A stretch of DNA of 64,000 nt from Leptotrichia wadei. Its GTDB lineage: Bacteria; Fusobacteriota; Fusobacteriia; Fusobacteriales; Leptotrichiaceae. A model generated the notes under the pieces. That model saw nothing but the letters and a program-made list of their open reading frames with translations, had not been told where the DNA came from and ran no database searches. The stretch lies in contig NZ_AP019829.2 of the NCBI RefSeq assembly GCF_007990545.2, positions 1,426,001 to 1,490,000 of the forward strand, read 5' to 3'. Below, in pieces: positions 58,596-64,000 of this stretch. How positions within the stretch are numbered: the first letter of the stretch is position 1; each line of letters starts with the position of its first letter. The translations under genes were made by a program, and so were the position numbers.

Positions 58596-58730
58596 GTGAA
58601 CTACTCCCGCTTTTAGAAGCGGGAGCTTCTTGGGAAGTATCTGCTTTTGTTAGCCAAATATATTTACCAAGCTCTTCGGGCTGTTCCTACCCTGTCTTCT
58701 TTTATTTTCTTAATATTTCAACATTGCTTT
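58596..58730 (-). ncRNA. putative omega RNA (TnpB guide RNA) scaffold
   Basis: TnpB guide RNAs run from the tnpB 3' end to the right end, with the guide in flanking DNA. This stretch has a tight hairpin (AGCCCGAAGAGCT on the minus strand) and the terminal 9-bp hairpin, then GTAGTTCAC. The guide would be the adjacent minus-strand bases TAAAAGCAGGCTTTTTATTT, the pcp terminator arm. Confidence 0.5.
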
Positions 58731-59807
58731 TCCAATGTTTTTTATATTCAGTGCCGCATTGTAATCTCTATCAATTTCAATCCCACAGCACTCACATTTA
58801 TAACTTCTTTCTGATAATTTCAGTTCCTCTTTAATATTTCCACATTTACTGCAAGTTTTCGACGATGGAAACCACTTATCTATCTTCAAAAATTGTTTCC
58901 CTAAAAACATCAACTTGTACTCAAGCATTTTCAAAAACATTCCCCATCCATTATCTCCTACACTTTTACCAAAATTTAATGCCTGGCTCATTCCTTTTAT
59001 ATTCAAATCCTCAACAACTACAGCATTATACGCTTCAGACAATTTTTTCGATAATTTATGTAAAAAATCTCTTCGACAATTTTTAATATATTCATGTAAT
59101 TTTGATATTTTCGCTTTTTGTCTATACCAATTTTTAGAAAATTTTACTTTTCTCGATAATGATTTCTGTAATTTTTTCAATTTTTTCTCCAACATCCTAA
59201 AATATCTTGGATAATCAGCTCTTTGGTTTTCAGAGCTGACAAATAATTCAGACATTGAAAAATCAAGTCCAATCACTTTATCATTACTTGGTATTTTTTG
59301 AATTTCTTTTTCAAATTCCGTCAAAACAGAAACATAGTAATTTCCATTACTGTTTGTCAATGTTACTGACTTTATCTTGTAATCCTTCGGTATTTCTCTA
59401 TGATATTTCAATTTTACTTTTTTCAATTTTGGCAAAACCAAATATTTGTTTTCTTCAATTCGTATCGAATTGTTCACACAATTTGTCGTGTAACTTTTAA
59501 CATTATTCTTTTTAGATTTGAACTTTGGAAACTTCGCTCTCTTCTGAAAGAAATTCATAAACGATCGTTTTACATTCAATTGAGCATTTGAAAGTGCCAG
59601 ACTATCTACTTCTTTTAAAAATTGATTTTCACTTTTCAAACTGGCAGGTGTAATTATTTTATTTTTTCCAGTTTCTTCATAAATTTTATTAGCGATACAC
59701 AAAATCGTATTGTAAACAAAACGAACACATCCAAAAGTCTTATTTATCAATAATTCCTGCTCTTTATTTGGATAAATTCTGTATTTGAATGCTAAATTAT
59801 ATTTCAT
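58710..59807 (-). CDS. tnpB: RNA-guided endonuclease TnpB
   Basis: A 365-aa TnpB, ancestor-type of Cas12. The N-terminal OrfB_IS605 part begins YRIYPNKEQELLINKTFGCVRFVYN in segments; RuvC residues are Asp182 (VIGLDFSM), Glu266 (VVVEDLNI) and Asp348 (DRDYNAALN). The zinc finger is C319-x2-C322 and C338-x2-C341. All catalytic residues are kept and the length is normal, so it is probably active. AAGGAGGTG precedes ATG. Confidence 0.95.
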   Translation of the reverse strand: MKYNLAFKYRIYPNKEQELLINKTFGCVRFVYNTILCIANKIYEETGKNKIITPASLKSENQFLKEVDSLALSNAQLNVKRSFMNFFQKRAKFPKFKSKKNNVKSYTTNCVNNSIRIEENKYLVLPKLKKVKLKYHREIPKDYKIKSVTLTNSNGNYYVSVLTEFEKEIQKIPSNDKVIGLDFSMSELFVSSENQRADYPRYFRMLEKKLKKLQKSLSRKVKFSKNWYRQKAKISKLHEYIKNCRRDFLHKLSKKLSEAYNAVVVEDLNIKGMSQALNFGKSVGDNGWGMFLKMLEYKLMFLGKQFLKIDKWFPSSKTCSKCGNIKEELKLSERSYKCECCGIEIDRDYNAALNIKNIGKAMLKY

Positions 59808-62282: not shown

Positions 62283-63518
62283 TCAAATATTTTTTCCTAA
62301 AAAATATCCAGATGCCCAAGCCCACTGTAAATTAAATCCTCCACATTCACCATAAACATCCAGTATTTCTCCAGCAAAATAAAGATTTTTAACTTTCTTA
62401 GACTCTAGATTTTCTAAATTTACTTCACTTAACGGAATTCCTCCAGCAGTAACTTGAGCCACTTTAAATCCATTTGTGTCAATAATTTTTATTTTATATT
62501 TTTTCAAAATCGTACAAATTTTACGAATTTCATTGTCTGTTAAATCATTTATACTTTTCGATAATTTTTCTATTCCTGCAGATTTTGTCAAAAATTGTCC
62601 TAATTTCTTATTAACAACCCCATTGAAAAACTGTTCCATTGTAAAATCTTTCAATATTTTTCGACGTTTTTTCAAAATTTCAAAAATCTCATTGTACGTA
62701 AATTTTGGCATAAAGTCAATTTCAAATTCTACATTTTTGTAAATTGGAAAAACATAAGAAATATTAAAAACCACATTTCCAGAAATCCCAAAATCTGTAA
62801 ATAACAATTCTCCATCATAAGTACAAATTTTTATTTTTTCTCCATCTTCATTTTCTCCAAAAGCCGTAACTTCCACATCCGACTTAATCCCCTTCAGTCC
62901 CCTTATTTTCTCCTTTTCCGCCTTCAACTGCACAATAACAGGCGTTAATTTCGTAACAGTATGTCCAAACTTTTTCGCCAGCTCATACCCGCTTCCATTA
63001 GATCCCAGCTCAGGATAAGATTTACCGCCAGTGGCAAGGACAACCTTTTTTGCAGTAATTTGCCTTTTATCTTCTGAAATTATCTTAAAATCAAACATTT
63101 CCTTTTCAATTTTCATAGCGTAAAAATCTGTAATTATCTCTATTCCAAGGCTTTGCGCATAAAATCTAAGCCCATCCACAATCGAAGCCGCCTGTCCGCT
63201 AAGCGGATAAACCTTTCCTCGATTCTCCTCGTTGCAAATAATTCCAACTTCATCTTCAAAAAATCTCATTGCATCTTGCGAAGTAAAACTTCCTAAAATT
63301 TTCTCAATTGGCTGCCTCATTTTTTCAATTCCAAAATAATTTTGATTTGAAGCATTTACATTTGTCAGATTACATCGACCATTTCCAGTAGTTAGAACCT
63401 TTTTTAAAACCCTGTCCTTTCTTTCTAAAATGACAACATCTTTTCCATTCTTCTTGGCAGTAATCGCTGTTAAAAATCCCGAAGCACCGCCACCAATTAT
63501 TGCTATTTCTCTTTTCAT
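62283..63518 (-). CDS. HI0933/BaiN-family flavoprotein
   Basis: A 411-aa NAD(P)/FAD oxidoreductase. FAD motif IIGGGASGFLTAITAKKNG lies at 6-24, TGNGRCNLTN follows, then VVLATGGKSYPELGSNGSG and the C-terminal FAGEILDVYGECGGFNLQWAWASG. BaiN of gut clostridia acts in bile-acid dehydroxylation, but most relatives have no known substrate. First gene of a three-gene operon with the COG2509 protein and YbaK. Confidence 0.9.
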   Translation of the reverse strand: MKREIAIIGGGASGFLTAITAKKNGKDVVILERKDRVLKKVLTTGNGRCNLTNVNASNQNYFGIEKMRQPIEKILGSFTSQDAMRFFEDEVGIICNEENRGKVYPLSGQAASIVDGLRFYAQSLGIEIITDFYAMKIEKEMFDFKIISEDKRQITAKKVVLATGGKSYPELGSNGSGYELAKKFGHTVTKLTPVIVQLKAEKEKIRGLKGIKSDVEVTAFGENEDGEKIKICTYDGELLFTDFGISGNVVFNISYVFPIYKNVEFEIDFMPKFTYNEIFEILKKRRKILKDFTMEQFFNGVVNKKLGQFLTKSAGIEKLSKSINDLTDNEIRKICTILKKYKIKIIDTNGFKVAQVTAGGIPLSEVNLENLESKKVKNLYFAGEILDVYGECGGFNLQWAWASGYFLGKNI

Positions 63519-63586
63519 CCTATAATTTTATTCTCCTAACTATTTATTCAATACTATTTTTTATTAAATGGTCAAACCATAAAATA

Positions 63587-63609
63587 AAAACGAGCCATGT
63601 GCTCGTTTT
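63587..63609 (-). terminator. terminator upstream of the BaiN-type operon
   Basis: AAAACGAG (63587-63594) pairs with CTCGTTTT (63602-63609); on the minus strand TTTTTATTTT follows. It ends the short RNA described here and may also end cinA transcripts. Confidence 0.8.
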
Positions 63610-63657
63610 CTTGTATGAAAGAAGTCTAAATGTAGAGATGGGGCATCCCTATTAGAC
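63587..63657 (-). ncRNA. candidate short structured RNA or attenuator leader
   Basis: About 70 nt between a strong promoter and a terminator. The RNA would begin right at stem GTCTAA/TTAGAC (63651-63656 and 63623-63628 region), enclosing hairpin AGGGATG-CCC-CATCTCT with one G-U pair. Then comes a single-stranded linker and the terminator hairpin. It is either a free small RNA or a leader controlling the BaiN operon 69 nt further on. It matches no riboswitch class that I know. Confidence 0.5.
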
Positions 63658-63663
63658 AGTTTA

Positions 63664-63692
63664 TTTATATCATATAAATACGTTTTTGTCAA
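63664..63692 (-). promoter_or_regulatory. strong promoter inside the cinA-BaiN gap
   Basis: Minus-strand consensus TTGACA (63687-63692), 17-nt spacer, TATAAA (63664-63669), predicting a start near 63657. Confidence 0.75.
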
Positions 63693-63706: not shown

Positions 63707-64000
63707 TTAATTTTCTTTAATTTCCACAGCCTGCGGATAAATTTCTTTAATCTCATCTGCAATTTTATCAATTTCAGCAATCAAATAATCTGAACTCCCA
63801 CGATCTCCCTTCATCGCAATTCTAACGTGAACACACCCTTCCTTTGCATAAGGGGCAACAGTTGGATTTGACATTTCAAAATAATTCTTTAACCTATCAT
63901 CAATTCTTCCTTCTGGAATTCCTCTTATTTCCAGTGTTCTCATTAATAAAACATCATTTGAATATTGCTTCAAAAGTGGCAAAACTTGATTGTCAACCAT
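63707..64000 (-). CDS. cinA: CinA-like protein, 3' part
   Basis: The gene continues past the window edge; the ATG at 64000 is internal. The 97 residues read VLPLLKQYSNDVLLMRTLEIRGIPEGRIDDRL in segments, then NPTVAPYAKEGCVHVRIAMKGD. This is the region after the MoCF domain in CinA. The frame ends soon after, so the C-terminal amidase domain of full CinA is missing, making this a short MoCF-type CinA (ADP-ribose pyrophosphatase-type half). Confidence 0.82.
   Translation of the reverse strand: MVDNQVLPLLKQYSNDVLLMRTLEIRGIPEGRIDDRLKNYFEMSNPTVAPYAKEGCVHVRIAMKGDRGSSDYLIAEIDKIADEIKEIYPQAVEIKEN

What the first reader, a model, noticed from the sequence alone, without database searches (positions are those of the whole stretch)
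63587..63692. Promoter, nested 5' hairpin and terminator: a candidate new small RNA or riboswitch-like leader
Seen: TTGACA-17-TATAAA, then a ~70-nt stretch opening with a nested hairpin (AGGGATG-CCC-CATCTCT in an outer GTCTAA stem) and closing with a good terminator, before a flavoprotein operon. Inference: a free RNA or an attenuator for the BaiN-type genes.
Basis: partly seen in the sequence, partly recalled or inferred. Interest (0 to 1): 0.6.

Follow-up and report, generated by a model that had tools for sequence, protein, structure and literature searches.

The report
Conserved 72-nt small RNA of Leptotrichia
The short stretch is very probably a previously uncatalogued small regulatory RNA that Leptotrichia and its closest sister genera keep almost letter for letter wherever it sits in the genome, so it is not a switch for the neighbouring flavoprotein gene; what it regulates is still unknown.

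Summary
TTGACA (63692-63687), a 17-nt spacer with extended -10 TGATATAAA, then a 72-nt unit (63657-63586): 5' hairpin, 13-nt unpaired linker, intrinsic terminator (fold z = -6.2; terminator-like sites expected by chance 0.1).

A covariance model over 98 Fusobacteriota genomes finds one strong copy (>100 bits) in 19 genomes: all 13 of the window's genus, Leptotrichia, plus 6 in four sister genera. No other match exceeds 30 bits. Between genera the RNA is about 93% identical while flanks are ~50% (background) and the adjacent flavoprotein is 64-69%. All 19 keep TTGACA-17-TGn-TATAAM (one TAATAT), with the same start G.

The RNA precedes the HI0933/BaiN-like gene in only 14 of 19 genomes. In three Leptotrichia genomes that gene is 84 kb to ~963 kb away, yet the RNA is intact; and the gene exists in 12 genomes without the RNA. 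There is no open reading frame, no Rfam match and no phage/plasmid copy.

Best reading: a new, Hfq-independent, probably base-pairing sRNA with a C-rich apical loop and pyrimidine-rich linker as candidate seeds. Incomplete target searches gave no convincing conserved target. The RNA is nearly invariant, so covariation neither supports nor refutes the helices.

The parts
63687..63692 (-). -35 box TTGACA
   Evidence: Sequence; TTGACA in 19 of 19 orthologous loci
63664..63672 (-). extended -10 box TGA-TATAAA, 17 nt from the -35
   Evidence: TGn-TATAAA/C in 18 and TGG-TAATAT in 1 of 19 loci, always 17-nt spacing
63586..63657 (-). small RNA, about 72 nt, predicted start at G 63657 (inferred from 5-6 nt spacing to -10; not measured)
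   Evidence: Conserved in 19 genomes, single copy, >100 bits
63624..63657 (-). 5' hairpin: outer stem GTCTAA/TTAGAC, inner stem AGGGA/TCTCT with C-rich apical loop (candidate seed 1)
   Evidence: Fold z -6.2; stems intact in all copies, apical U-A pair in only 3 of 14 distinct sequences
63611..63623 (-). unpaired linker TTCTTTCATACAA, invariant in all 19 (candidate seed 2)
   Evidence: Alignment A2; unpaired in predicted folds
63586..63610 (-). intrinsic terminator, stem GAAAACGAGC/GCTCGTTTTT, loop ACATG (ACACG in relatives)
   Evidence: Terminator scan; conserved in all copies
62283..63518 (-). neighbouring HI0933-like / BaiN-type flavoprotein gene; downstream neighbour in 14 of 19 genomes, judged not to be controlled in cis
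   Evidence: PF03486 and TIGR00275; synteny

Best explanation
It is a stand-alone small non-coding RNA gene, a new family restricted to Leptotrichia and four sister genera. RNA polymerase with the housekeeping sigma factor would start at G 63657 and stop at the terminator, releasing an RNA of about 72 nt capped at both ends by hairpins. Shown by sequence: the gene unit, its conservation, single copy, independence of neighbours and lack of coding capacity. Inferred: that it is transcribed, that it acts in trans, and that it works by short base-pairing to mRNAs through the C-rich apical loop (CGCCCCA) and/or the invariant pyrimidine-rich linker (TTCTTTCATACAA), probably on G-rich ribosome-binding regions and without Hfq. 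Confidence that it is a trans-acting sRNA gene is about 0.85; that the mode is mRNA base-pairing is about 0.6.
For: One copy over 100 bits in 19 of 98 Fusobacteriota genomes and nothing else above 30 bits. RNA 90-96% identical to the window's copy, against 45-59% for the upstream flank and background-level flanks between genera; the BaiN-like neighbour is 64-69% identical between genera. Promoter TTGACA-17-TGn-TATAAM kept in 19 of 19 (one TAATAT) with start G at fixed spacing. Neighbours change: five loci lack BaiN directly downstream, and upstream genes differ widely; BaiN is far away in G010, G012 and G014. Near-invariant bases include unpaired ones (linker, loop), as expected of a recognition surface. 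No ORF kept, no Rfam match. The genome has its 6S RNA elsewhere and no detectable Hfq. C-rich seeds are the documented mode of the fusobacterial sRNAs FoxI and FoxJ, FoxJ's lying in a hairpin loop (PMC11005410).
Against: No expression data were available. No base pair shows a compensatory change because the sequence hardly varies, so the helices rest on thermodynamics. Target searches were incomplete and gave nothing convincing: linker complements did not exceed the reversed-pattern control; the loop complements examined lie inside coding sequences; the energy scan of 421 start regions was no better than shuffles for the linker and only marginally so for the loop; the two candidates followed up (BCCP-like gene, mnmA) were not seen in the distant genera whose loci were read. 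A protein-binding role is therefore not excluded.
Confidence: 0.75

Rival explanations
1. A trans-acting RNA that works by binding a protein (titration or modulation, in the manner of CsrB or 6S RNA) rather than by pairing with mRNAs.
For: Extreme invariance of both stems and loops, including the terminator loop; constant promoter suggesting steady expression; no convincing conserved mRNA target found.
Against: No repeated motif such as the multiple GGA sites of CsrB; too short for 6S, and 6S is found elsewhere in the genome. Linker and loop are typical accessible seeds.
Confidence: 0.17
2. A 5' leader (riboswitch or attenuator) of the HI0933/BaiN-type flavoprotein gene, with the terminator controlled by a ligand or protein.
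For: In 14 of 19 genomes the next gene on the same strand is this flavoprotein gene, starting 113 to 307 nt after the anchor motif used; a terminator lies between promoter and gene.
Against: RNA is kept intact in G010, G012 and G014 with the gene 84 kb to ~963 kb away and a gene of opposite direction next downstream; in G021 another gene is next. Gene present without the RNA in 12 relatives. No alternative fold.
Confidence: 0.05
3. A short regulatory DNA element without a functional RNA product (for example a terminator with a fortuitous promoter, or a repeat element).
For: A terminator is present and the element lies between genes.
Against: Single copy per genome; conservation covers promoter, linker and start position, and ignores the neighbours; no phage, plasmid or viral contig carries it.
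Confidence: 0.03

Closest known systems
FoxI and FoxJ, sigma-E-dependent sRNAs of Fusobacterium nucleatum (PMC11005410)
   Same: Same phylum, stand-alone small RNAs acting without Hfq/ProQ; C-rich seed, in FoxJ placed in a hairpin loop.
   Different: FoxJ is about 156 nt and both use sigma-E promoters; this RNA is about 72 nt with a housekeeping-type promoter. No genome outside the 19 gave a match above 30 bits.
Leptotrichia manA-II and fhsA motifs (riboswitch candidates, PMC11109978)
   Same: Structured RNA elements with terminators, found in Leptotrichia species.
   Different: Those precede specific genes (manA/pflA-like, fhsA) and are leaders; this one is independent of its neighbours.
Hfq-independent base-pairing sRNAs with C-rich loops in Gram-positive bacteria (for example RsaE/RoxS, LhrC; from general knowledge)
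   Same: Short, hairpin-capped, unpaired C-rich or pyrimidine-rich seeds presumed to meet G-rich ribosome-binding sites.
   Different: No sequence match in Rfam; resemblance of design only.

Membership tests
Bacterial trans-acting sRNA gene (general kind) | Own promoter and own intrinsic terminator | tested here: met
   Promoter in 19/19 loci; terminator in all copies
Bacterial trans-acting sRNA gene (general kind) | No conserved protein-coding frame | tested here: met
   The ATG in the window's copy is ACG in most relatives; frames on the other strand shift with linker indels
Bacterial trans-acting sRNA gene (general kind) | Conserved independently of adjacent genes | tested here: met
   Synteny breaks
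Bacterial trans-acting sRNA gene (general kind) | Discrete transcript detected | not testable with these tools
   No RNA-seq data available here
Bacterial trans-acting sRNA gene (general kind) | mRNA targets with conserved complementarity | tested here: inconclusive
   about a fifth of one genome scanned by energy, patterns in 7-11 genomes
Cis-acting leader (riboswitch/attenuator) of the BaiN-type gene | Always directly upstream, in sense, of the regulated gene | tested here: not met
   14 of 19 only; 84 kb to ~963 kb apart in three genomes
Known Rfam family | Match above the curated gathering score | tested here: not met
   Best is STnc370 at 23.2 bits against a cut-off of 54, E 2.3
FoxI/FoxJ | Sequence homologue in Fusobacterium | tested here: not met
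   No match above 30 bits outside family f1; FoxI/FoxJ sequences themselves were not compared
6S RNA | Match to RF00013 | tested here: not met
   The genome's 6S is at G000:C1:2100566-2100768, elsewhere

The most novel reading that the evidence does not exclude
A core regulatory RNA of the Leptotrichia lineage under near-complete sequence constraint, acting on several mRNAs at once or on a shared RNA-binding protein, in a bacterium without Hfq, through a mechanism not described for sRNAs of other phyla.
Probability: 0.2. Interest if true: 0.65.

Novelty: new member of a known kind. Interest (0 to 1): 0.45.

Why it matters
Leptotrichia, the oral genus that supplied several Cas13a enzymes, has no small RNA that I could find described in the papers searched. 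This candidate is single-copy, near-invariant and probably constitutively expressed, so it is easy to test and could be the entry point to post-transcriptional control in an Hfq-less lineage. It is also a clean case of an sRNA that keeps its own sequence while its neighbours are reshuffled.

Tried and rejected
Rfam at E up to 10: only chance-level matches. Riboswitch/attenuator for BaiN: rejected on synteny. Small protein or toxin ORF: rejected. Mobile or phage-borne element: no phage, plasmid or viral contig match. Covariation test: uninformative because almost no pair varies. A first covariance model, R1, had a mis-set structure line and was replaced by R2. Target search by pattern and by duplex energy: no robust target. 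Follow-up of two candidates: GGGG next to the start of the BCCP-like gene is seen in G000, G016, G012 and G014 but not in G017 or G020; the mnmA complement is seen in G000 and G016, weaker in G011 and G005, and absent from G012, G002, G017 and G020. Orthologues returned in reverse orientation (for example G007, G021, G003) were not turned round and read, so these two follow-ups are partial.

Full report
What was checked. The finding lies on the minus strand between a cinA-like gene (stop at 63707) and an HI0933/BaiN-type flavoprotein gene (62283-63518; PF03486, TIGR00275). Its elements are real: TTGACA 63692-63687, 17-nt spacer, TGA-TATAAA ending at 63664, a predicted start G at 63657, a nested hairpin to 63624, an unpaired linker, and a terminator 63610-63586. 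The RNA folds at -25.8 kcal/mol against a shuffle mean of -10.2 (z -6.2). One terminator-like site is present where 0.1 is expected.

Distribution. A nucleotide search over the family found clear copies in all 13 genomes of the window's genus and in six genomes of four other genera. Named records recovered with the flavoprotein (L. hongkongensis, Leptotrichia sp. oral taxon 879) have the contig lengths of G007 and G009, so the genus is Leptotrichia. A covariance model (R2) run over 98 Fusobacteriota genomes separates cleanly: 19 genomes at 101.7-107.5 bits, one strong copy each, and nothing else above 29.9 bits. The other genera of the family, and all other families, lack a detectable copy. 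Phages, plasmids and viral contigs have none.

Constraint. Across genera the RNA body is about 93% identical to the window's (90% in the most different congener) while upstream and downstream flanks fall to about 50%, and the neighbouring flavoprotein is 64-69% identical. Invariant positions include unpaired ones: the linker TTCTTTCATACAA and the CCCC of the apical loop. The promoter is kept in 19 of 19 loci at exactly 17-nt spacing with an extended -10, and the start G is always 5-6 nt further on. The window species is slightly unusual: with two relatives it has U at position 13, closing the apical loop to CCC; the other species have C there, giving a 7-nt CGCCCCA loop. Because so little varies, no compensatory pair changes exist and covariation gives no verdict on the helices.

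Not a leader of the flavoprotein gene. The flavoprotein gene is immediately downstream in 14 of 19 loci. In G014, G012 and G010 it is about 84, 935 and 963 kb away (counted along the contig) with the RNA intact; in G021 and G022 it lies about 5.3 kb and 1.4 kb downstream with other DNA between. Twelve relatives have the gene and no RNA. Upstream neighbours also vary: cinA, an ilvE-like gene, aspartate kinase, a glutamate-transporter-like gene, a TetR-like gene (names from my reading of the translations except cinA). This is the pattern of a free-standing gene.

Mechanism. The design (blunt 5' hairpin, accessible C-rich loop, pyrimidine-rich linker, terminator) is that of a base-pairing sRNA. 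The genome has no Hfq detectable with PF17209, as reported for F. nucleatum, whose sRNAs FoxI and FoxJ use cytosine stretches as seeds. I therefore favour Hfq-independent mRNA pairing, as inference. Target searches were limited and negative: linker complements did not exceed the control, the loop complements examined fall inside coding sequences, the energy scan of 421 start regions showed at most a marginal excess for the loop, and two followed-up candidates were not seen in the distant genera that were read. Protein binding remains possible.

Novelty. No Rfam family matches. The papers found describe Fusobacterium sRNAs and Leptotrichia riboswitch candidates, not this RNA. The intergenic survey of PMC11109978 includes L. 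buccalis and might list this region in supplementary tables that I could not read. As a kind of thing it is ordinary, a lineage-specific sRNA; as a family it appears new.

Noticed in passing
window 58710-59807 (-): An intact-looking IS200/IS605-type TnpB (RNA-guided nuclease family); a very similar protein is encoded elsewhere in the genome, within G000:C1:1-400000.
   Followed up: no
window 63707-64000 (-), L002: The cinA-like gene next to the RNA encodes only 256 aa, ending after the KH domain, against 414 positions in the NCBIfam models; it stops 14 bases before the -35 box of the RNA.
   Followed up: no
G012:C1:395484-396561: A second, broken copy of mnmA, 93% identical to the intact Leptotrichia gene, beside the normal copy at 1040719.
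   Followed up: no
G000:C1:2100566-2100768: 6S RNA of this genome, just above the Rfam cut-off (51.9 against 46.4 bits).
   Followed up: no
window 63645 (RNA position 13): U in the window species, G016 and G011 but C in all others, changing a C.A mismatch to a U-A pair and shrinking the apical loop from 7 to 3 nt.
   Followed up: partly
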